From NCBI RefSeq assembly GCF_000340215.1, contig NW_006921533.1, forward strand, positions 497,616 to 561,615: a stretch of DNA of 64,000 nt, given 5' to 3'. Position numbers and translations under genes: made by a program. This document shows, one piece after another, positions 50,117 to 64,000 of this stretch (position 1 is its first letter; each line of letters begins with the position of its first letter). Source of the stretch: Pseudocercospora fijiensis CIRAD86 (Eukaryota > Ascomycota > Dothideomycetes > Mycosphaerellales > Mycosphaerellaceae). The notes under the pieces were generated by a model, which was given only the letters and a program-made list of their open reading frames with translations, was not told the DNA's origin and made no database searches.

Positions 50117-51301
50117 TTATTCTTCTTGTGAAGACTGGCTCAGACGTCTAGGGTCACCATTCTTGATCATATGTGTGTGAAGTCTCGCCACTTCAGGCAC
50201 AATCAAGCTTTCAATCTCAAGGGCTGGCTCGTTTGATTCTCCATCAGCGCCAGGCGTCCTGCTCGTGATGCTCTTACTCCTCCTATTTTGCGGCACTCTG
50301 ATCCATTTTTCCCCACCGCCCGCAGATACAAACAGAACTTCGTACTTGCGAGTGTTGAGAATGTTCCCAATGACCAGATGGTGTGCGTACTTGTCCAGTG
50401 CAGTCTTTGCTTTGATTGAGAGCAGATTTGGGTCTGTCTCAAGTTTGAAGCTGATGATCATTGCTCGCGGTGCCCACTCATCGACCAGCGACTTCAAGAA
50501 CTTTGGAACAGGGTCGAGATCAATGACCAGAGATTTGCCTTCCATATGTGCGGCCGGCTGGCGTCCGCGAAGCTGCTCATCATGCGGCGCATCGCCATTG
50601 AGATCTTTCTTTTGCCAGAAATCTTCCGAAGACTGAATCTTGTGCTCGACCATTCTGTCTGCCGGCACGAAGAAATCCGAGACGGCTGCTGCAAGGTAGA
50701 AAAGCGCATTGGCGCCAAGAGGCTGTAGAAGCATTGCAAATTCTCGCAAGAGCCACAAATAGTCATTGACGGTGACGAATGGCAGAAGCAATAGTGTGTT
50801 CTCTTTCTTGGCTGTCCGGTACCGCTTCAAGACCGAAGCCATTTCTTGCTGATAGTTATTCTGCACAGTGACCGGACCATCTTCGGAGTAGGACATGTAG
50901 TCCAGGAAGCAATTCGTGCTATGGCTGTAATGTCTTGAATATGGAAGCAAGGAGAATTGACGATGCAGGAAGATGACTGCATAACCATTCTCGAGGAAGT
51001 ATTCGGCACTGGTGGCTCCACGAGTTCCAGCAGAGAAATTGTCGATGAATCTGACAGTCTGATTCTCCAGCGGAACGGTCGTGCCTCCAGATGTCACCAA
51101 CGCCACTCTTCTGCCTTTATCGACATGCTGTTGTATGAAGGCACGTGTCTGCTGCGAATGCCGGTCCAAGTCGTGCGGCTTGGGGTTCTTATCGAAGTAC
51201 TCCATTTCTGGCGATCCTCGAGCAAAGTGTCCGTTGGTGAAGAGTGGCATGTGACAGCTTGTCTCTGGGGTGCTATGACTGGTAGCGTGCCTGGCGAGCA
51301 A
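50117..51301 (-). CDS. CAB2: Phosphopantothenate-cysteine ligase
   Basis: Single-exon gene of 394 residues. It joins 4'-phosphopantothenate and cysteine with a nucleoside triphosphate in coenzyme A synthesis (yeast Cab2, human PPCS). Signatures: [11 protein letters not shown] at 70-79, [19 protein letters not shown] at about 85-103, [18 protein letters not shown] at 204-211 followed by [26 protein letters not shown] at 284-290 and [10 protein letters not shown]. The length fits the eukaryotic dimeric enzyme. The first 30 or so residues look non-conserved, so Met33 may be the real start. It is divergent from SLU7 over 378 bp. Confidence 0.93.
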
Positions 51302-51679: not shown

Positions 51680-53122
51680 ATGCCGCCAAATCCTGCCAAG
51701 GGCGCGACGGAGAAGCCGAAGAGTAACGATCGCAACGAGTATATTCCGTCTTTTATCGCCAAGAAACCCTTCTATATCGACGACAACACTGCCTCCGATG
51801 CCGATTACCTCGAGCATCAGCGTCTGCAGTCGCAGAAAGATGGCGATACTCTTGCGAAAGCGGAGTGGTACAACCGTGGATCCAATAAGGGTCCCGCCGC
51901 GACCAAATATCGCAAAGGCGCATGTGAAAACTGTGGATCGATGAGCCACAAGGAGAAGGACTGTCTGCAGCGAAAACGAAAAGCCGGAGCAAAGTGGACG
52001 GGCAAGGGCATCGCCGCAGACGAGGAAGTAAAAGATGTCAAATTGGGTTGGGATGCGAAGAGAGACCGCTGGAATGGATTCGAGGCAGACGAGTACAAAA
52101 CGGTGGTAGAGGAGTACCAGGAATTGGAAGAGATGAAGAAGCTCGCGGAAGGAAAGACTGGCGGGGATGGCGATGAGCAGGATGGCGAGGGCGCAAAGTA
52201 TGAGGAAGAAGCAGATATGGGGCGGAAGGTGGCGACTTCATCAAGAAATCTGCGGTTGCGAGAAGACACAGCCAAGTACCTCGTGAATCTAGATCTCGAA
52301 AGCGCCAAATATGATCCCAAGACCAGAAGTATGATCGATTCTGGGGGTGGTGATCCGAGTTCGTTAGACGCAGAAGACGGTTTTTCCAGAGCAAGCGGCG
52401 ATGCGGCAGAGTTTGAGCGAGCACAGAGGTATGCGTGGGAAACGCAGGAACGCAACGCTCCAGACAAGATTCACATGCAAGCGAACCCAACAGAAGCCCT
52501 GCTCATACGAAAACGCAAGGCCGAGGAGGAAGCGCAGAAGACAGAAGCCAAGAGGAAGGCATTGGCAGACAAATATGGCGATCAATCATCGATCTCGAAA
52601 CCCAAGACTGCTCTTGCGGCTGTGAGCAACGAGCGATACGTAGAATATGACGAGCGGGGCCGGATCAAAGGTGAAGCACAAAAGAAAGAGAAGAGCATGT
52701 ATCCTGAGGATGTCTTTATTCAAAACCATACATCGGTCTGGGGCAGTTGGTGGAAGGACTTCAAGTGGGGCTACGCATGCTGTCATAGCACAGTGAAGAA
52801 CTCTTTCTGTACTGGTGAAGAGGGCAAGAAAGCTGCAGAAGAAGCCGAAAATTTCTCGAGAGGACTCAATCTACCGTCAGCTGAGGAGAGTGGAAACGCG
52901 AAGCTTATCGACAACGGTGAGGCAGCTACTCGACAAGAGGAGCACGTTCCCAACAGCGTTGACCGGCCAGAGAAGCAAAATCTGGACGAGAGCAGAAGAA
53001 GGCTAGAAGAGCTCAAGACTGGCGTGACAGAAGAGCAAATGGAGAAGTGGAGGAGGGAGAAAACAAATCAAAACGACCCTATGGCAAAAATTCTAGGGAA
53101 GGATGAATTACTAGAGGTCTAA
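51680..53122 (+). CDS. slu7: Pre-mRNA splicing factor SLU7
   Basis: Single-exon gene of 480 residues. SLU7 acts in the second catalytic step of splicing, in 3' splice-site choice, in the nucleus. N-terminal NEYIPSFIAKKPFYID is followed by a CCHC zinc knuckle with Cys82, Cys85, His90 and Cys95 (CENCGSMSHKEKDC). The middle contains the conserved KLGWDAKRDRWNGF, LRLREDTAKYLVNL and DKIHMQANPTEA blocks. The C-terminal block MYPEDVFIQNHTSVWGSWW and YACCHS is diagnostic for the family. Charged coiled-coil segments fill the rest. The start ATG follows an A/G-rich context and matches the family N-terminus. Confidence 0.96.
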   Translation: MPPNPAKGATEKPKSNDRNEYIPSFIAKKPFYIDDNTASDADYLEHQRLQSQKDGDTLAKAEWYNRGSNKGPAATKYRKGACENCGSMSHKEKDCLQRKRKAGAKWTGKGIAADEEVKDVKLGWDAKRDRWNGFEADEYKTVVEEYQELEEMKKLAEGKTGGDGDEQDGEGAKYEEEADMGRKVATSSRNLRLREDTAKYLVNLDLESAKYDPKTRSMIDSGGGDPSSLDAEDGFSRASGDAAEFERAQRYAWETQERNAPDKIHMQANPTEALLIRKRKAEEEAQKTEAKRKALADKYGDQSSISKPKTALAAVSNERYVEYDERGRIKGEAQKKEKSMYPEDVFIQNHTSVWGSWWKDFKWGYACCHSTVKNSFCTGEEGKKAAEEAENFSRGLNLPSAEESGNAKLIDNGEAATRQEEHVPNSVDRPEKQNLDESRRRLEELKTGVTEEQMEKWRREKTNQNDPMAKILGKDELLEV

Positions 53123-53270: not shown

Positions 53271-53694
53271 TCAAAGCTGACTTCTCCTCATCATCATCTT
53301 CGCAAAACTCTCCCTCTGCGTCGACATCCAAACCGATGCCTGATCTTTCTCCGTCTCGGCGATATCTTGTTGTCGTCTGCTTCGCATCATCTCCTCAAAC
53401 CTCGCTCCTTGATCTGAAATCCAGGTGTCTGCTTGAGATTTTTGAGCTTGGGCGATGAGATTTTGATGTTGAGGGAATTGAGCTGGAAGGCAAAGGGAAA
53501 GGGAAAGTGTTAGTTCGTTAGTTACTGTATCAGGGATAGGAGGGAGGGAGGGATGTATATTTACCGTTGATCGGGGAGGGAGGGTTCATTGTTGGTGGAG
53601 TAGGAGGTTTGCTTCGGATTGGGATTTGGAATGATGTAGACGTGGTTGGCGCGTCGCAGGTTGGGATGTCTGAGGAATTGGATGCAGGTGTCAT
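53271..53694 (-). CDS. Small Gln/Arg-rich protein, unknown
   Basis: Two exons on the minus strand, 53694-53565 and 53482-53271, around an 82-nt intron with a polypyrimidine tract, give 113 residues. The N-terminal half is Pro/Ser/Thr-rich (FQIPIRSKPPTPPTMNPPSP), the C-terminal half is predicted helical (QNLIAQAQKSQADTW, RFEEMMRSRRQQDIAE). No signal peptide or membrane segment is seen. I recognise no family. It lies between SLU7 and the UstYa-like gene. Confidence 0.5.
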
Positions 53695-53879: not shown

Positions 53880-54911
53880 TCACGGAATCTCGCTCCACAC
53901 AGTAGTAGTACCACCCATCTTCTTCTTCGGCGGCTGCAAAACATCCTTGGGAACCTTCTCAGGCATCTGTCTTTCTTCAGCCCATCTCCTAACATCCTCA
54001 AAATTCCTGCAGATGTGTTTGGTATTGAAATCTACGAAAGGTTCAGGAGAATGATTTCCGTGCGGTTGCCACCAGATTTGTCCCATGACGCCGATATCGA
54101 CTGTGCACATGAGTTGCTGGCGTAAGATGTCGAGGCAGTGGGCTAGAAGTGAAGATTAGCTAGCTGGGGGGAATAAGGAATTTTTGATGGATTATGGTGA
54201 AGACTGACTGGAGTGTTTTTTGACGATGAAGGGTTCGTTTTTGAAGGCGCCTTGGCCGAGGGATTGGTAGTAAGGATAGTTCCAATGGAGAGTCTGGCGG
54301 AGCAGGTTCTGTTGAAGAAGGAGTCGGCATTCAAGTATGTAAATTGGACAAGGGGATACCCACGAGACAGTGCAGGTGATGCAGTCCCTCGATATTAGCG
54401 GGATAACCTCCTCCGTATTTTTCTTTGAGTTGCACTTGATCTGAGTCCATACCAATTGACTCGGCGATGTAGGAAGGGATGATAATTGCGTGATCTACAA
54501 GATTTGCATGTCAGTAGTTGAACACACTGGGAGACGAAAAAATTCGATCTTACAATCTACCCCTAACTCTTTCCACGCGGCATCGACTTCCGGTCCAGCA
54601 TCTGCCCGATAGACATTCTCTTTAAGCAAAGAGCCATTGAACTGGACCTCCGTCCACTGGATAGCGAAGTCGCGAAGTATGGGCGAAGGCCTCGAGATGG
54701 TCTTGATGATCTCCTGGTTCGTGATCTTGCTGGGTTGAAGATGACTTGCAAGATTGAAACCCAGCAAGAAAGATAAGCAGCAGATGATGAGTACAAAAGC
54801 CACTTTCGTTTTCGATTGGCGCAAACGATCGCAACTGCATTTTCGCTTTTCCGAACGCTCGAGATGCGACGTTTCGAGCTCTGAATTCTTCTCCATATCA
54901 GCATACACCAT
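53880..54911 (-). CDS. UstYa-like protein (DUF3328)
   Basis: Four exons on the minus strand, 54911-54554, 54494-54364, 54308-54209 and 54142-53880 (introns 59, 55, 66 nt; phases agree), give 283 residues. A cytosolic tail precedes one membrane helix at about 37-55 (VAFVLIICCLSFLLGFNLA). The lumenal part contains FNGSLLKENVYRADAGPEVD, GGGYPANIEGLHHLHCL with HHLHC at 158-162, RQTLHWNYPYY, and HCLDILRQQLMC starting at His198; the two HxxHC-type motifs are the family hallmark. UstYa proteins install oxidative cross-links or cyclisations in fungal RiPPs (ustiloxin, cyclochlorotine, asperipin). A secreted tyrosine-rich precursor starts 552 bp away in the opposite direction. Met6 is an alternative start. 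Confidence 0.92.
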
Positions 54912-55463
54912 AGTCGATGGTCGTGCCCAATCCCACTCCTGTCTTGAAACAACCCGACAAGAAGTCGTTGTTATTGTTATGAAGGCCTTGTTATAGAGGT
55001 TCTTGTTGCTAAGAGGTCATTTGGTTGCTAGGTGAAAAGTGGGTCTGTAGATGAAGACTCGAGGAAGCGGCTGATTGGAGGCAGTCCCACTCTGCATGCA
55101 CCCTCCTAAGTGCGTCTCCAACTCCCTTCATCGTCATCCTCCACGTCCATCCTCGAGGCTGAAGCAGTAAGTAGCAAACAAGCTCCGTCTCACCGCATTC
55201 AGTGCAACATCTCGTTTCTCGAACCACCGAGTCGGTCCAGTGATACAAATGTGGCGTACGGTACTGTTGTGCACGTCCGAACCAGGATGAACTTGTCCTA
55301 CTACACGAACGTCTGGTCTGTTTCGAAGGACCGCCAGGATCGCACGATAGCCCTGCTCTGCACTTGAAAGGTTTTGTTTGCTTGGGCAGCATGGCGGAGC
55401 TAAGAGTATAAGTTGGGAGAGTTGACCTCGAGAAGGAATCCACCCATCACCGTCGAAGTCAAG
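54912..55463. promoter_or_regulatory. Shared divergent promoter of UstYa-like gene and precursor
   Basis: 552 bp between the two divergent starts. A TATA-like tataag lies at 55407-55412, about 52 nt before the precursor ATG, and a minus-strand ctataa at 54991-54996, about 80 nt before the UstYa-like ATG. A weak ORF (55009-55443, minus) overlaps it. Confidence 0.4.
55009..55443 (-). CDS. Doubtful ORF of 144 residues
   Basis: Open minus-strand frame between the UstYa-like gene and the precursor. It is Cys-containing (TRCCTECGETELVC) and Ser/Arg-rich. No domain, signal peptide or conserved motif recognised, and it would occupy the promoter of both neighbours, so it may be a chance ORF. Confidence 0.15.
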   Translation of the reverse strand: MDSFSRSTLPTYTLSSAMLPKQTKPFKCRAGLSCDPGGPSKQTRRSCSRTSSSWFGRAQQYRTPHLYHWTDSVVRETRCCTECGETELVCYLLLQPRGWTWRMTMKGVGDALRRVHAEWDCLQSAASSSLHLQTHFSPSNQMTS

Positions 55464-55815
55464 ATGAAGGGATTGGGAATTGCGCTGGTATTGACTGGCT
55501 CGGCTTTCGCTTTGCCCGTTCTTGTCGTGAGGCGAGGCGATCCTATGCCTGCGACGAATGATGCTTACAGTGAGTACGTGGAAACTCGCAGCAATGATGG
55601 ATGCTGATATGCATGCTTTAGTCGAATACTACACTGTGAGTATGAAAGTCTTCCGTCGGTTGTATGGAGTACTTACATTGCGGCCATGTTAGTACCAGGA
55701 TTATGGCAGCTACCAATTGACTGGCTACGGCGATTATCCTTCCTATACTCCACCAGCCAGCACGCCACCAGCAACGAAGGAGGATGCCAAAACGGAGAAG
55801 GGAGCGAAAGAGTAA
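55464..55815 (+). CDS. Small secreted Tyr-rich Kex2-type precursor, candidate RiPP precursor
   Basis: Proposed exons 55464-55569, 55622-55635 and 55693-55815 (introns 52 and 57 nt; a 14-nt micro-exon) give 80 residues. The signal peptide is MKGLGIALVLTGSAFALPV, cleaved after about residue 17. The dibasic Kex2 site RR at 23-24 is followed by GDPMPATNDAY. The next segment holds nine tyrosines at 35, 38, 39, 41, 44, 47, 52, 55 and 58 (EYYTYQDYGSYQLTGY shows most of them). A Pro/Thr-rich linker and a Lys/Glu-rich tail end the protein. Signal peptide, Kex2 site and a Tyr-containing core next to a UstYa-like gene are the features of dikaritin precursors; LTGY recalls the TGY of asperipin. Unlike known precursors the core is not repeated. 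Alternative: an ordinary small secreted Tyr/Gly-rich protein. Confidence 0.6.
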
Positions 55816-55871: not shown

Positions 55872-56120
55872 TTAGTCTACCACTCCAGGGGGTAAGAGCA
55901 CCACATAATCCAGAGGGGCAAATTCGATCCCACTTGGCTGTCCCACGATTTTCAGCACATCGCCTTTCTTGACCGCGACTCCATAAAATGTGATCCTGGT
56001 CGCAGAGTGTCCGTCGATGTAAATTGAAGGAGTATGTCCAAGCTTCCCCGTGTCAACGATATCCGCAGCTGGACTAAAGCTCATCATCCTGGTCTCCGAC
56101 GAAGCCCGCACCGCCCTCAT
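55872..56120 (-). pseudogene. aguA: C-terminal remnant of GH67 alpha-glucuronidase
   Basis: The minus-strand ORF ends with LGHTPSIYIDGHSATRITF, then VKKGDVLKIVGQPSGIEFAP and LDYVVLLPPGVVD, which I recognise as the extreme C-terminus of fungal secreted GH67 alpha-glucuronidases (xylan side-chain removal, normally over 800 residues). Only about 65-80 codons remain. Immediately upstream, from about 56.14 kb, the sequence becomes RIPed repeat. The gene was therefore broken by repeat insertion or rearrangement at this point. The remnant itself shows no RIP-type stops. Family assignment is from memory of conserved end sequence. Confidence 0.65.
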
Positions 56121-56159
56121 CCGAATCGTCGAGCATAACAGAATCTTCCTCTATAGCCT

Positions 56160-58350
56160 TCTTTGCTCGCATCTTATTAACCTTCGTACCGAAGGATCTT
56201 AGAGCCGCATTGCCTAGCTCTTCTTTATCTAGTATCTGATACTCGATCTATACGCTATACGAGTAGTATCGAACTATTCTTACTTTGCGCTTCTAGCCTA
56301 CCCGATTCTCCCTCGTCTTCGCCTATTTACTCGCTGCTAGGTTCTAGTTAAGGTCGGCTATAAGTAACAAGTTCGCTTCGACTATATTATAGCTACGCTT
56401 AGCTATACTTACAGAGCAGACGAGAATGTCTACGCCCGACGTCTAGGACCGATTGAACTCTACGATTAGTTGTAATCGCTAGCTAGCGTCCTTCGGTACC
56501 CTTAAGTTAAACAGCTACGACTTTAGACTAGCCTTCTTATACGCCTAGATAGAAGTGTTAGTATATTGCTTTAGCTCTTATTTACGAAGGCAGAGCTTAC
56601 TAGATTGATAGTGTAAGCTACTGCGTTAGAATAGCTTATTACTACGGCCTTACGGCCCTTATTATCTTTAACGGTGTTAGCCGTCTGCTTCTTAAGCTCC
56701 GCGATAATGTCCTTAATACGTAGGCTTTCTATAAGCTCGTTAAGGAAGTAAGTATATAGGTCTATATCGGGCTTAAAAAGCTAGCCGAAAGACTCAATCT
56801 CCTTTATAGTAAATTCTATTTCCTACTCCTTAGTAGATACCGGCGCGTAGCCTTTGCGCTCTAGATCATTGTTCCTTACCTTAATAAACTTGTTAAGGGC
56901 CTTGCTGCAGTTCTTCCGTACCTAGTCGGTTATTCGAGTCGGCAAGGTAAGGCCGCGCTTATCTTTAGATAGTAGAGGCGATAGGGTAGTTCGAATTCGT
57001 GTCCTATAAGAGCCGAGGAAAAACTGCCTCTACGCAACCGCCTTAGCGTTAATCTTTCCTAAACGGATCTTCTAGTTAATGCTCCGCTTTAGCTTTTCTA
57101 CCTAATCATTCAATTCGTTAATTATATCCTAAGGTAGCTTAATGTTCTTTAGCTTCTTATCTGCATTATCTAATAGTCGCATCTTCTGTTCGGGCTTTGT
57201 TACGTTAAACGGCTAGACCGATTTATATGTCCGCAGTATAAGAAAGTGCCTTAATACTAGCATAAGTAAGTTAGCTATTAGGATTTCAGGCTCCTTAATA
57301 GAACCCTTTTTCTAATGCTCTCCGCCTAAAGCTTTCTCGTAGCGATTAATTATCCTCTTAAAGCCCTCGCCTAGAGGCTTACTTCTAAACTCGTTCTATG
57401 CTTTAAAGTCCTTCTAGTAGTTAGGGTCGGATCGCCCCCTGTTATTACGGCGAGCTAAGGCGTCGAAGACTCTAAACTATTCAATTATCGGCTTCTACGT
57501 TCTAGCGATTAGGGTGCCTATTACGAAATACACCGCACATTTCGTGTTATAGTTTACGCTTAGCTTACGAAGCGTACTTATGCTGTTCGTATATATTCTA
57601 TACTCCTCGTTAGCCTCGTCTACTACGATAGCTCTAACTAGTAGAGTGTTGTAGGCCGCGGTTTTGAAATCAGTCGAGCTATTTGCGTAAGGCCTGCCCT
57701 CTTAGGTCCTCCTAAACTATACGGTCGAGACAGAGAAATTCTAGTTCTCGTAGAATACGTAGAAACGACCCTTTAGCACGAATACGAGCTTCTTATACAG
57801 ACCGAGGGGCGCCTTAGTAATGATTGGATTTTACGTAGAGCCCGGACAGTTAACTCCCTTCCGGTACTTATCTACTTTAGGAGTCGCAACGCGATTAGGC
57901 GTAAAGCGCATTACGTCTCCCCTTTTGAAGAGCTTAACACTATCTATTTCCTCTTTCGCATTATCTATATTAGGCGGGTTAAAGTTGTATAGTTCAATGC
58001 CTAGCTCCTTAAAGTCCGTATAAGCTAGGAATTTCTTTATAGTATCGGGTTTCAAACCGGCAGTTAGGCACAGAATTATAATGCCCTTACGAAGCCTAAA
58101 ACTACGCTATAGGTCGCGCTGCTTACATCTATAGGGGATAGAAAACTTATTCGCAGATAGGCATTTCGAATTTTCCGTACCCCGTAGAAGGTGTTTCTCT
58201 AGATTATCTGTGAAAAACGAAGATTAAAAGTTGCTCTATAGTTTTGCCGAGACCTATAATGTCGCCTAAGATTCCTCCGGCTTCTCGAGTATACTGCGGT
58301 CGGCAGAACATAAGCTAAGCAGCTCCGAACACTTAGTAGGCGTATAGCTT
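56160..58350 (-). pseudogene. SNF2-like helicase relic (RIPed)
   Basis: Minus-strand frame with RIP-type stops. The P-loop region reads GGILGDIIGLGKT at about 58.24-58.28 kb (usual DxGxGKT). A long open piece 57831-58055 lies between. The DEAx box reads IVVDEANEEYR near 57.62 kb, where N can derive from D by G-to-A. It is followed by YFVIGTLIART (GTP box, motif III) and the insert RNNRGRSDPNYQKDF. A C-terminal helicase strand KAVVISYSNAVAYTI is near 56.65 kb. This order is that of SNF2-family ATPases. It is embedded in repeat sequence, so it probably belongs to a mobile or subtelomere-type repeat. Confidence 0.65.
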
Positions 58351-58920
58351 TGTCTTAAAGCCCGGTAGGGCGATAGGTGTTTCGGGATCTACGAAAAGTT
58401 CAGGCGACAGACGCAGACAGAGGCAGATGCGTTTAACGTGCTCGTGCGTTATCTGCTCTAGCTCGGCAGTATAACTCTAGTTAAGATCCCCTGCCTAGGT
58501 TCGCTTAATACGGTCGAGGAGCTCTTTATAGGTCTAACTTAGAACATAAGGGGTCGCCTCTGTCTACTCCTCTAGGTCGTCCGGCTCCGGAGTGTACGTA
58601 TCTGCATTAACTATAGGCTAAGCGCGTCTAGCAGTCCTGCTATTCCTTATAGGCTCCGAGTTAGTATTAGAGTCGAGCGGCCTAGTACGAGCATAAGGAT
58701 CTCGTATACGTTTACTAGCATCTAACCCTCTTCCGTTTCTCGTTAGACTATTATCGAGACCTTTACTCGATCTATATAGTTACATCGACATGTTATCTAT
58801 AGAACGCTAAGAACCTAAAGGATATAGATAACTTTCTCGGGAAGTGACGATCCTAGGCAAAGCTCCCGGCGCGGCAGTGTCTGTAGTCGACTCTTAACTA
58901 TTTTCCTTAAGTCCAGAACC

Positions 58921-59243
58921 TTAAGTATTCTCTTAAGCATTCTCTTAAGCATTCTCTTAACTATTCTCTTGACCATTTTCCTTGAGTCTAGAACCTTGAG
59001 CATTCTCTTAAGCATTCTCTTAAGCATTCTCTTAAGCATTCTCTTAAGCATTCTCTTAACTATTTTCCTTGAGTCTAGAACCTTAAGCATTCTCTTTAGG
59101 ATTCTATTGAGCATTCTCTTAAGGATTCTGTTAAGGATTCTCTTAAGGATTCTCTTAAGGATTCTCTTAAGGATTCTCTTAAGCATTCTCTTAAGCATTC
59201 TCTTAAGGATTCTCTTAAGGATTCTCTTAAGCATTCTCTTAAG
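58921..59243. repeat. 12-bp minisatellite (cattctcttaag)
   Basis: About 27 units of a 12-mer (variants cattctcttaag, gattctcttaag, tattctcttaac) interrupted by two blocks of ttccttgagtctagaacctt. On the minus strand it stays open (58815-59234) and reads repeats of LKRM/LKRI with VLDSRK blocks, a strongly basic amphipathic array upstream of the helicase frame. Confidence 0.85.
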
Positions 59244-61079
59244 GCGTAGAAGGCACGGCTAGAGCATTCGGCGCGGTAGTAGTTGCAGTCGACGTATAAC
59301 TGTTTGTATTAAGTCTAGAACCTTGAGCCTACTATAAAGATACCGGCGTAGGGGCAGGCGGTAACTTAAGATCTCTAAGCTTAACAACCTTCGGTAGAGC
59401 TCTACCGAATAGAACAGGGCGCTTATCGTTAGGCGACGGTGTCGATGCCCTCGATAATAGAGGGATACTAAATGCGGCGCTACGTAAGAGTTCGCTAGCT
59501 TAGAGACCTAACCGCTGTCGGCGCTGCTTATAACGACGCTCCTATATCTCTAGGCTGAATAGTAGCTTCTCTCTTAGCTATAAGTCTTCCGACTCTACTA
59601 AAGCTATAGTAGCTATAGCGATCGGACTGCTCGCATTCGTTTTCCGCTTCTTCTCGATATACCTATTAATATCTCGGCTAAATATCGCGCGAGCCTTATT
59701 GTCGAATTTCTTGTTTGCCTACTCGACAAAATCTAGCTCGTATTCTTATAGCTCTAGTTAGTAGCCGATAAACAGCAGTATTTTAACACCCGCGGCGCCG
59801 TATCTGCCGGCTGTGCTGTATTTAGTAACGGCAGCTTCGAACTTACCGTTATCGGTGATCTTATTCGTATCGTCCTCGCCTAGGTTTACTACTGCGATTA
59901 CGATATCTAACTAGTCGGTGATGTGAAACTTAGACCTCAACTAATCCTCTAGGAGGTTATACGACAAATCTAGGTATAACAATCGATAATCACCTTTATA
60001 AACAAATTTCTTTAGAGTCGTAGAGGGCGCTTGCCTAAGATATCCTACCTATAGTATCGAAAATAGTTAGCCGAATAGCTATACGATAAGCACTATGTCT
60101 AACCGATCGACTACGGCTAGCGTAATAGTATAGGTATTCCTAGCCTAGGGCGTCTAGAGTCTTCTAGTAGATGCAGGGAATGTAGATCCCGGCTGCTGTA
60201 TTTGCAATTTTCGACTAGTAGCAAAGTCTCGACTACCCTAATCCTAGACGCTGTTTACATCCCCGCCGCTAGGGTTTGCTTCTATTGGAAGGACTTCACT
60301 CGCCGCCTTATTGTTTGATATTGTCTTTAATGAGCTCGCTGACAATAGTATAGGTCTTAGGCGGCGGCTAGATAATAGCGTAGGTGTTTAAGTAGGCTCG
60401 CGCTTAGGCGTGTCTTTATTAGTCTATTATTGCTTAATGAAGACAGACTATCCTTTGCGGATCTTAGAGTCCGATACACCTAGACTAATAGCGCTGCTTA
60501 GGTAGCGGAGGCAAAATTCTACGGCGGCGCGATGCTACTCCTTCTTGTTATTATTATCCTTCTAAGGGCCCTAATTTCTTATATAGCGATTAAGAATTTT
60601 CTGTTCGTCCCCTTTTAGGCTCCCGTCCGGGAGACCCTACTAATCGTAGACGTAACGCTTTGCTATACTATTTCCTACTATATAGTCGGAATGATTTGCG
60701 GGTAGCGCGTCGTTATTAGGAACAAATAACTATGCGACGAGTGTATCGATTTCGTCCTCTATAAAGTAACGGCGCTAAGGTGTTAGAGCTAGTAGTAGCG
60801 GCGTCGCAGCGGGCTCCGCTATAGTAGCGGCGGCCGTAGTATGCGGTTGTTAAAGCGAAGGTATAGTTGTCGCGGTTGTAGCGACCCGGTATTGTTTTAA
60901 GTTTCTAAATTAGCGAGGTAAGCTTTCGTCAATTTAGCATCTACGCAAGTAAAGCCGCTGCGAAACCGTTTGCTTAGTGACAGGGGTTCGCATTGCATAT
61001 GCGCGCTAGCAGGACCGTAATCTATAGTAGCTAGCTGCTCCCTGCCTCTTATTTAATACCGTCCCTTACACTACTAAGA
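59244..61079 (-). other. RIPed repeat, possible N-terminal part of the helicase ORF
   Basis: Minus-strand readable pieces with RIP-type stops: KRYVYD, GLPDGSLKGDEQKILNRYI near 60.6 kb and LRYLSSAISLGVSDSKIRKG near 60.5 kb. No domain recognised. They could belong to the same large protein as the SNF2 relic. Confidence 0.3.
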
Positions 61080-61450
61080 ACTATTGCGAATAAATGCTAA
61101 CTGTAGCTGCAAGTATTTCAGACCTTTAATGTTACTCCTTACCTATTCTAAATACCAAGTCTATATCGCAACTAGGCACTCGATGTTTTACGTATCTATC
61201 TTTCGCTATAGTAGTAGTTCTTATAGTACGGTGCTTCCTTAATTGCGCGGTAGACAATCGTACAAGGTCGGCACTACATCCTTTGTCGTAAAACAATACT
61301 TTGCGATTATAGATTGCTCTTTTATCCGACACAATGTGATTAAGAACTATATGTCTAATAAATACTAGCCGATCTCCTTTAAAGTCGCAGCCCTCCTCTC
61401 GGCACTCGAGATAGTCTAGTCTACGCTGTATAACAAGAAGGTTTATCTGC
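61080..61450 (-). pseudogene. RIPed ORF with possible C2H2 finger
   Basis: The minus strand reads LECREEGCDFKGDRLVFIRH followed by IVLNH, a C-x4-C-x12-H-x5-H pattern like an atypical C2H2 finger, then the open segment SDKRAIYNRKVLFYDKGCSA (61132-61332). Partner and role unknown; it lies upstream of the helicase relic on the same strand. Confidence 0.35.
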
Positions 61451-63240
61451 GTACGGGCTTTATTGTATTTAGTATCTCCTATAACTCCTATCTATAATGG
61501 ATCTAGATAGGGAGGGTTATAGCGACAGTCCTTTCCTTTACGAGAGCGACCCTTTCTATTGTAACAGTACTTCCGATCTACATTTTCGCTGTAACTCTCT
61601 CTTATAATGTAGAATGGATTCCTATAACAATTGTTCCTACATAGGTGTAATTGCTTATAATAATCCTAGACTTCATTAGCTATATATAGGGACAGCCCTA
61701 TCTGCATTACCTTAGCTATTAGAGCGGTTAGCGAGTGAAACCCGCTATAAATGCATTTCAGGTCGAGGGGCTATATATAGAAGTTATACAGCGAGAAGAC
61801 TAATCTGTTACCTATAGTCTGCTTAGCGGCTGTCCCGTCCCTCCTAAGTAGTAGCATACAACCAAATTCGTAATAGAAGGTTTGGATCTTTTCGAAGTCG
61901 GCCTCTATAATCGTATACTCTCTACGCTATTGCAGATTAAGGCCCAGATTAGTAAAGTATTGCTAGGTAAAGCTTCTACAGCGCTATTGTACGATGTCTT
62001 GTAAGAACATCTATGTTATACACTTCGGTATATTAGTTATTATTGCGAAGTCTTCTACGGATATCTCGCGTAGCGCTAATGTGTCAATATGCTTACGTCG
62101 CTCGTGCTATAGAGAATGTTCCGTAGGTGCAGTAATTGTAGCGACACTATCCCCCTTAGCCTAATTGGTATACGCCTTTAGATTGGAGCGATAAGCTTAC
62201 GTAGGTGCAATTGATGCCCGAGCGAGTACTTAAGCGACTATATCGGATAATGCTTGAGTAGACTAACGCCCGCCTATAGTAGTGCGATTACGACTAGGAG
62301 CGATAGGCACGCTCGTCGGCACATTTAGTATATTGCTAGCTATAGCAGATATTCTATAAGCAGGTTGAGAGGGGTTTACCGCGGGTTTTCGTATTAGCTT
62401 CTACGGCGGGGTTTCCTAGATCTGATCTAGCGAGCTGTATAGAATCTCTAGCAAGGTACTATAGTTAGACGAGGCAATAATACCTAGGATGTTGGGTAGA
62501 AGTGCTAATAGGCTCTGTATCTCGTATATTACAAATCTCTTCTGCTTCTTTATAGGAGGTGTCTGCAATTCGCCCTAAATCTCTGCATCGCGTTTCGTAC
62601 CTCGTGTATCTATATAAGATTGCTACTGTACCTAGCGTAGCATATAAGGCTAGTTATCATTTCGACCTATTATACTAGCTCGTAGTCTACCGCTAGTTTG
62701 CTCGGCGTTAATGTTAGCGGTATGCGTATCTTAGAGTAGCTTAGGAGTCGTAGATTCTAGGCTATTATTAGCAACTAGAGCAACTCCCGTAAGATAGATA
62801 AGATCCTCTCTCGTTGTTCTTACTCTCCCGTACCTTCGGAGTACTCTTATAGCGGATACAAAATTCGATAGCGAGAATTAGGCGGTATAGTTGCACTTTA
62901 AGAGCCTCGTAAGCTCGCTAAGCTATACGTACTTGTCCTTGCATCGCTCTAAGATATCGATAATCGTATATATAAGAGCTATAGCGGGTTTATGTTTTGT
63001 TATTAGAGAGGCTACATCGGAGCCCCGATATAACTCTGTATTAGGTCGAGGTAGAGAGACGGGCTCCGTATCGTCTAGCGATCGCTTCGGCTGCTAACCG
63101 TAAGCAGATACTAGAGAGTCTCTGCTATGTATACTAATATCGCGGCGTCTGTTATTATAAGGACTTAGTGTATAGGTAATCTAAGAGGGGCTATCTCGCT
63201 CTCTAGATATTGTATAGTAAGCAGCTAACGTACTGCCTTA
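61451..63240. other. RIPed repeat, unidentified
   Basis: TA-rich, CA/TG-poor sequence without a recognisable frame or terminal repeat; the plus ORF at 62891-63097 has no domain. Confidence 0.4.
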
Positions 63241-63540
63241 AGGAGCATTAGGATCTTAACGAGTATCAAAGTCTTAACTAGTATTAAAGTCTAGAGGAGC
63301 ATTAAAGCCTAGAGGAGCTAGCAAATCTTGACCGGCATTAAAGTCTTAACCGGCATTAAAGTCTTAACTAGCATCAAAGTCTAGAGGAGCATTAAAGCCT
63401 AGAGGAGCATTAAAGCCTAGAGGAGCTAGCAAATCTTAACCGGCATTAAAGTCTTGACTAGCATTAAAGTCTAGAGGAGCTAGCAAATCTTAACGAGCAT
63501 CAAAGTCTTAACTAGCTACTAAACGTCGAGGAAGCTGCGA
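63241..63540. repeat. 18-bp minisatellite
   Basis: About 16 degenerate units of 18 bp around agcattaaagcctagagg and gcattaaagtcttaacc, alternating in blocks and interspersed with gctagcaaatctt units. Confidence 0.8.
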
Positions 63541-64000
63541 ATATCGAGGAGCTAACAAGTCTTAAGGAGCAGTAACGTCTTAGGAGTGCTCTGAATTTTA
63601 GTAGCGCTTCGACTGCTAGAGAGGAAGCTGCTCTTTTCTCGCCGGTCTTAGCGCCTACTCTGTTCTAGACGGTCTCGGCGCCTACTGTTTTCTCGACGGC
63701 CTCGGCTCCTGCTCTTCCTCTTCCTCGGTATCGAAGCCGTACCATTCTAGGTATTCTTCTGCTACCGCAGTACTAACATTCCTACGAATAGGTGCGCCAA
63801 AGTTTATACTGCGTAACTAAGTAGGCTAGGAAGGTTCTAACTCTTAAGCTCGTTGCTTTAGTTCGGTAAATAGAGGTAGCGTATTACCCTATACGTCGAT
63901 AGCAAGGCTAGTCTTCCGTATATTAGTAAGCGGGTATGCTAACTCCCTAAGTGCTACTAACCTTCTTTCCGCTAGTACGTATGCTTCCCGTCTGTAACGT
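63541..64000. other. RIPed repeat, unidentified, runs off window
   Basis: No frame or motif recognised. A Ser/Leu/Arg-type low-complexity stretch with ctcggcgcctactgttttctcg-like repeats occurs near 63.64-63.72 kb. Confidence 0.3.

What the first reader, a model, noticed from the sequence alone, without database searches (positions are those of the whole stretch)
53880..55815. Candidate minimal dikaritin-type RiPP locus: UstYa-like gene divergent from a Tyr-rich Kex2 precursor
Seen: a 283-residue DUF3328 protein with one membrane helix and two HxxHC-type motifs, 552 bp from a divergent 80-residue ORF with signal peptide, Arg-Arg at 23-24 and nine tyrosines at residues 35-58. Known: UstYa-family proteins cross-link Tyr-containing cores of secreted, Kex2-processed precursors (ustiloxin, phomopsin, asperipin). 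Inference: the pair makes a cyclic or cross-linked tyrosine-rich peptide. New aspects would be a single non-repeated core and a cluster with only one UstYa gene. Other tailoring genes (second UstYa, P450, peptidase, methyltransferase) are not visible; they may be absent or lost at the repeat boundary at 56.14 kb.
Basis: partly seen in the sequence, partly recalled or inferred. Interest (0 to 1): 0.88.

Follow-up and report, generated by a model that had tools for sequence, protein, structure and literature searches.

The report
UstYa enzyme beside single-core peptide
A fungal gene for a peptide-modifying enzyme of the UstYa family stands back to back with a gene for a small, apparently secreted, tyrosine-rich peptide; several ordinary repeat-type peptide loci in the same genome have this layout, but here the peptide has one unrepeated core, which makes it an unusual and still untested variant of a known kind.

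Summary
53880-54911(-) encodes an intact 283-aa UstYa protein (PF11807, 184 bits; HHLHC, HSTHC). 55464-55815(+) encodes, in three exons with a 14-nt micro-exon, an 80-aa protein with a signal-peptide-like start, one Arg-Arg and nine Tyr at 35-58. The Tyr frame has coding bias; the micro-exon-skipping frame does not.

The pairing gains moderate support from the same genome (probably Pseudocercospora fijiensis, inferred). At 7 of 14 other UstYa neighbourhoods read I found repeat-type precursors, each head-to-head with a UstYa gene (five found without regard to orientation; orientation is informative at three of these). The window pair has that layout (552 bp). Its leader, ALPVLV.RR, recurs beside another UstYa gene.

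Against a standard dikaritin: no repeats, no second dibasic site, no tailoring gene among the ORFs tested, and no relative of the peptide in two protein searches, though the enzyme's clade is widespread. A single UstYa gene is not new (asperipin-2a).

Best reading: a two-gene UstYa RiPP unit with a single long Tyr-rich core. Expression, splicing, enzyme-substrate link and cross-linking are inferred. New variant of a known kind; moderate interest.

The parts
53880..54911 (-). UstYa (DUF3328) oxidase gene, 4 exons: 54911-54554, 54494-54364, 54308-54209, 54142-53880; 283 aa
54912..55463 (.). 552-bp divergent spacer; TATAAG at 55407-55412 on the peptide side, near-palindrome CCGAGTCGG at 55227-55235 (no function shown)
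   Evidence: sequence; one search found CCGAGTCGG in none of five other UstYa/precursor spacers
55464..55815 (+). Candidate precursor gene, 3 exons: 55464-55569, 55622-55635, 55693-55815; 80 aa
55464..55535 (+). Leader: signal-peptide-like start and LPVLVVRR (residues 1-24)
   Evidence: related leader at C5:1048001
55566..55746 (+). Tyr-rich segment (residues 35-58, nine Tyr), split by two introns
56000..64000 (.). RIP-altered repeat DNA that bounds the unit on the right; continues in most of the next 8 kb
   Evidence: RIP indices; composition

Best explanation
A two-gene UstYa RiPP unit. The small gene makes a secreted precursor: the signal peptide takes it into the ER, the membrane-anchored UstYa oxidase faces the same lumen and cross-links or otherwise oxidises tyrosine side chains in segment 35-58, and Kex2 cuts after Arg24 to release one product of up to 56 residues. 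The two genes are driven together from the 552-bp spacer. Shown: both gene models are open, the Tyr frame has coding bias, the genes are head-to-head, and repeat-type precursors of this genome have the same layout. Inferred: expression, splicing, topology, enzyme-substrate link, chemistry and product.
For: Intact UstYa with both HxxHC motifs. Non-random Tyr-rich model with coding bias. Seven repeat-type precursors at 14 other UstYa neighbourhoods, each divergent from a UstYa gene; spacers of about 660, 739, 769 and 803 bp where measured (start codons of those UstYa genes chosen by eye). The leader ALPVLV(V)RR recurs 326 bp head-to-head from another UstYa gene (C5:1048001); the coded motif has only three places in 74 Mb, the third not a signal-peptide exon. 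Published: DUF3328 genes peak at the position next to Kex2-processed repeat proteins, and 65.6% of DUF3328-linked repeats contain Tyr against 38.2% of the others (PMC7329392, passages). The two paralogues most similar to this UstYa among the 10 neighbourhoods compared lie at loci with Tyr-containing precursors (C10, C12).
Against: No repeats and one dibasic site. No relative of the peptide among 5.8 billion proteins (1 candidate, none at E<=1; 10 candidates, none at E<=10) although the enzyme has 536 relatives and its clade is old. 15 of the 23 other UstYa genes scanned have no head-to-head precursor by my crude rule. At C4 and C10 (3.52 Mb) UstYa genes flank the precursor on both sides, so some divergence is certain there. 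The C5 relative of the leader is not followed by a Tyr-rich core. No expression data for this locus.
Confidence: 0.5

Rival explanations
1. The small gene is an unrelated Tyr-rich secreted protein (an orphan effector or cell-wall peptide) that lies beside the UstYa gene by chance, at the edge of repeat-rich DNA; the enzyme acts on another substrate.
For: No repeats; no relative of the peptide while the enzyme's clade is widespread; DUF3328 proteins also act in polyketide and nonribosomal pathways (PMC12048977 section 22); the locus abuts RIP-altered DNA, where orphan effectors are common (recalled). With some 37 UstYa genes in the genome (my grouping), one chance neighbour of this kind is not excluded.
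Against: Head-to-head layout like the repeat-type loci; leader shared with an ORF at another UstYa gene; no other such Tyr-rich model in 304 kb.
Confidence: 0.28
2. A decayed unit: once a repeat-type precursor, now reduced to one core by repeat loss near the RIP-altered boundary, perhaps no longer used.
For: Repeat-type precursors are what I found at 7 of 14 other neighbourhoods; the unit ends at RIP-altered DNA; the C5 relative of the leader has no visible core.
Against: Both frames are open, with coding bias; RIP indices of 53.0-56.0 kb are normal.
Confidence: 0.12
3. The Tyr segment is not translated: the 14-nt exon is skipped or an intron is kept, giving a 102-aa or a shorter protein without the Tyr run.
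For: The Tyr frame depends on a 14-nt exon; a single 123-nt intron would give an open 102-aa frame.
Against: Codon log-odds -10.2 for the skipping model against +10.9; both introns begin GTGAGT.
Confidence: 0.07

Closest known systems
Asperipin-2a locus (Aspergillus flavus)
   Same: One UstYa-type oxidase, secreted precursor, Tyr-rich core, Tyr cross-links (PMC7329392 and PMC9233826, passages; core FYYTGY recalled)
   Different: Its precursor is repetitive with short cores; here one core, up to 56 residues after the only dibasic site
Ustiloxin and phomopsin clusters
   Same: UstYa-family oxidases acting on Tyr-containing cores of secreted, Kex2-processed precursors
   Different: Two and five DUF3328 genes, and a tyrosinase (PMC7329392, passages); repeated YxIx cores; none of that here
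Repeat-type UstYa/precursor pairs of the same genome (C4, C5, two on C10, C12, C2, C9)
   Same: Head-to-head with a UstYa gene, signal-peptide-like first exon; the C12 core QYGTGGYGGYYPG has a similar Tyr/Gly make-up (by eye)
   Different: They have repeated cores between dibasic sites; the window's does not
Kex2-processed repeat proteins (KEPs)
   Same: Secreted Kex2 precursors; 22% of 7878 have DUF3328 neighbours (PMC7329392, passages)
   Different: Defined by repeats, which are absent here; repeat-based mining would miss this gene

Membership tests
UstYa (DUF3328, PF11807) protein family | Match to the family profile above the curated cut-off | tested here: met
   184.3 bits, cut-off 25
UstYa (DUF3328, PF11807) protein family | Two HxxHC motifs and an N-terminal membrane helix | tested here: met
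   (helix in the orthologue P0001); that the motifs define activity is recalled and from PMC12048977's abstract
Dikaritins | DUF3328 gene in the cluster (called the defining feature in a review cited by PMC12048977 section 22) | tested here: met
Dikaritins | Precursor with a signal peptide | tested here: met
   Only by a crude hydrophobicity rule of mine and by eye; no dedicated predictor was available
Dikaritins | Highly repeated core sequences between Kex2 sites | tested here: not met
   One dibasic site; repeat scan silent at this gene. Not filed as a dikaritin for this reason
Dikaritins | Tyr (or other aromatic) in the core, cross-linked through its side chain | tested here: inconclusive
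   Tyr present; cross-linking not testable here
Kex2-processed repeat proteins (KEPs) | Repeats separated by Kex2 sites | tested here: not met

The most novel reading that the evidence does not exclude
UstYa-type enzymes also serve a second precursor architecture: a single, long (up to 56 residues), tyrosine-rich segment cross-linked at several sites and made by a minimal two-gene head-to-head unit with no other tailoring enzyme. Repeat-based mining misses such loci, and some of the UstYa genes that now lack a precursor could be of this kind.
Probability: 0.28. Interest if true: 0.66.

Novelty: new variant of a known kind. Interest (0 to 1): 0.45.

Why it matters
The surveys of UstYa RiPPs that I saw look for repeated cores, and PMC12048977 (section 22) names a single core peptide as one possible reason why its clusters show no precursor. 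If this pair is real it is a concrete single-core case, and it gives a simple search rule for this genome: look across the divergent spacer of each UstYa gene. If the genome is that of the banana pathogen Pseudocercospora fijiensis, 11 DUF3328 genes are raised in infected leaf and none in culture (PMC5006380, passages), so a role in the plant interaction is possible, but nothing ties this locus to it.

Tried and rejected
Without result: relatives of the precursor among 5.8 billion proteins; paralogues in the genome (only its own exons); Pfam for precursor and for the 82-aa ORF; Rfam for 53.0-56.2 kb; solved relatives of the enzyme by sequence (one match, E 0.32, not credible) and by fold of its orthologue (320 matches at E<=10, none at E<=0.001); shared 8-mers of the window's spacer with at least three of five other spacers (none; the C2 spacer was taken as 700 bp by rule).

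Rejected: 'one UstYa gene is new' (asperipin-2a has one). Other Tyr-dense frames were dropped by eye as simple repeats or stop-dense AT-rich frames; two of them (L034 9814-9951, L027 3974-4072) were read and show no signal-peptide start that I could see. The third genome match of the leader motif (C5:5623327) is not a signal-peptide exon. One search printed 15 repeat rows: 4 kept as precursors, 11 dropped as other frames of these, satellites, masked runs or low complexity. One search printed 6 repeat rows: 1 kept. Searches returned nothing because of a fault in my signal-peptide rule, found; one search has the corrected rule, which is still crude (it missed the C10 precursor at 150419).

Limits: no fungal genomes other than this one could be searched, so synteny is untested. 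I read 14 of 26 other UstYa neighbourhoods (my grouping of 46 exon-level matches, a lower bound), four of them as 10 kb only.

Full report
WHAT IS THERE. The minus-strand gene 53880-54911 has four exons and encodes 283 residues. It matches Pfam UstYa over nearly the whole profile (184.3 bits, 11-220 of 220). HHLHC lies at 158-162 and HSTHC at 195-199; their His and Cys columns are invariant in 16 rows. In a protein search 536 of 741 candidates match at E<=0.001 (best 120 listed); the closest are Pseudocercospora fuligena (75% identity) and P. musae (66%), then 45-60% in many ascomycetes. No solved structure is credibly related by sequence; a fold of the P. fuligena orthologue (mean pLDDT 78, pTM 0.62) has no PDB match at E<=0.001.

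The plus-strand gene begins at ATG 55464, 552 bp away, with exons of 106, 14 and 123 nt. Its 80 residues comprise a hydrophobic start ending AFA, then LPVLVVRR, nine Tyr in 24 residues and a Pro/Lys/Glu tail; there is one dibasic site. Exon 3 in the Tyr frame has coding bias (+8.4 bits; 1.7% of 893 overlapping noncoding open segments reach this; 2101 coding segments average 6.7), while the other frames and the model that skips the micro-exon are negative (the noncoding set is 2.3 kb of nearby DNA and may hold unrecognised coding sequence). In 304 kb of real DNA no other signal-peptide model has 7 or more Tyr in 24 residues, and 173 Mb of simulated DNA gave none with 9.

WHERE. The genome has 73.9 Mb in 30 contigs. 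I take it for Pseudocercospora fijiensis: 74 Mb in PMC9002641 (passages); closest enzymes from that genus; four leaf-induced DUF3328 clusters on scaffolds 12, 2, 9 and 3 in PMC5006380 (section 12 part 1), contig numbers that carry UstYa matches here, as do six others (C1, C4, C5, C7, C10 and the window's own stretch of C2). Against: no near-identical P. fijiensis protein is among the 120 listed matches. The name is an inference.

SAME-GENOME CONTROLS. UstYa gives 46 exon-level matches, about 37 genes in 27 neighbourhoods by my grouping. Besides the window's I read 14, with 23 UstYa genes. Repeat scans blind to orientation found Kex2-type repeat precursors in five: C4, C5 (5.67 Mb), C10 (0.15 Mb) and C12, and C10 (3.52 Mb), whose repeats YGVDENDKVEKRQFYPV lie partly in exons of their own. 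A scan limited to head-to-head places added C2 (0.39 Mb) and C9 (0.26 Mb). Each of the seven points away from a UstYa gene. ATG-to-ATG spacers are about 660 (C10, 3.52 Mb), 739 (C4), 769 (C5) and 803 bp (C10, 0.15 Mb); the C12 precursor is 4.3 kb from the first matched UstYa exon; C2 and C9 were measured only to the first matched exon (1284 and 1427 bp). At C4 and C10 (3.52 Mb) UstYa genes stand on both sides and diverge, so the orientation says nothing beyond nearness; at the other three blind cases random orientation and side would give divergence with a chance of about 1/4 each, 0.016 together. The window's pair (552 bp) fits this pattern, which I count as moderate support (about 4 to 1).

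LEADER. At C5:1048001 an ORF starting MKLTICLLAIGAIAAVALPVLVRRAIDKVPAE stands 326 bp head-to-head from a UstYa gene. BLASTP aligns it with the window's leader at 15 of 29 identities (E 5e-5 for a single comparison). The coded motif ALPVLV-RR or ALPVLV-x-RR occurs at three places in 74 Mb: these two, and one that is not a signal-peptide exon. I designed the motif from the two, so the count shows only that it is rare. No Tyr-rich core follows at C5. This is weak support for a shared precursor type.

SURROUNDINGS. Left: Slu7 (51680-53122) and a DFP-type gene (50117-51301); farther left dienelactone hydrolase, RING protein, sugar transporter, short-chain dehydrogenase, YjeF_N and HET domains. Right: an 82-aa orphan ORF (55872-56120, minus; no paralogue, no Pfam, no PDB relative), then RIP-altered DNA: the four two-kb blocks 56-64 kb and three of the four in the next 8 kb. 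None of the ORFs tested is a second UstYa, P450, peptidase or methyltransferase.

READING. The simplest account is a minimal UstYa RiPP unit whose precursor carries one long Tyr-rich segment. It would work like the dikaritin route: secreted precursor, UstYa oxidation, Kex2 release (PMC9233826, passages). Membership is another matter: a DUF3328 gene, by one cited definition the mark of dikaritins, is present, but the repeated cores described for their precursors are not, so I do not file it there. A single UstYa gene is ordinary (asperipin-2a). A single core is raised as a possibility in PMC12048977 (section 22). My searches (listings only) showed no characterised single-core UstYa RiPP, but that library holds only open-licence papers; none of the 10 listed of 114 papers mentions DUF3328, so a published head-to-head rule was neither found nor excluded.

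WHAT COUNTS AGAINST. The peptide is an orphan while the enzyme's clade is old and widespread, so this enzyme did not arise for this peptide alone; 15 of 23 other UstYa genes scanned have no head-to-head precursor by my rule; nothing shows expression. Chance adjacency of a Tyr-rich secreted gene is the main rival (0.28).

Noticed in passing
L013 8822-9480(+), L019 8361-8668(-), L022 1420-1834(+), L027 2852-3237(-), L034 4399 onward(+), C2:387873(-) in L017, C9:257474(-) in L032: Repeat-type, Kex2-like precursor genes, each head-to-head with a UstYa gene; at C10 (3.52 Mb) and C9 the repeats are spread over small exons with introns between them.
   Followed up: partly
L024 1002 onward(+), C5:1048001: Signal-peptide ORF with leader ALPVLVRR like the window's, 326 bp head-to-head from a UstYa gene, with no core that I could recognise downstream.
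   Followed up: partly
window 55872-56120(-): 82-aa open frame ending at the RIP boundary, alone in the genome; by eye its end (APLDYVVLLPPGVVD) recalls the C-terminus of a glycosidase, perhaps a gene cut by the repeat. No search supports this.
   Followed up: partly
window 53530-53694(-): Small frame between Slu7 and the UstYa gene with no Pfam match; may be a short gene of its own.
   Followed up: no
window 58815-59262: Long frames on both strands made of 4-residue-type repeats (LKRM/LSIL): a minisatellite inside the repeat region.
   Followed up: no
L039 about 2.5-5 kb (C2, beyond the window's right end): Tandem repeats of some 20-25 codons with GC 0.52 and normal RIP index amid RIP-altered DNA.
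   Followed up: no
window as a whole, 537 ATG on the plus strand in 64 kb against 196 in 10 kb of L011: ATG is scarce in the RIP-altered parts, as expected if CpA to TpA change removes CAT/ATG.
   Followed up: no
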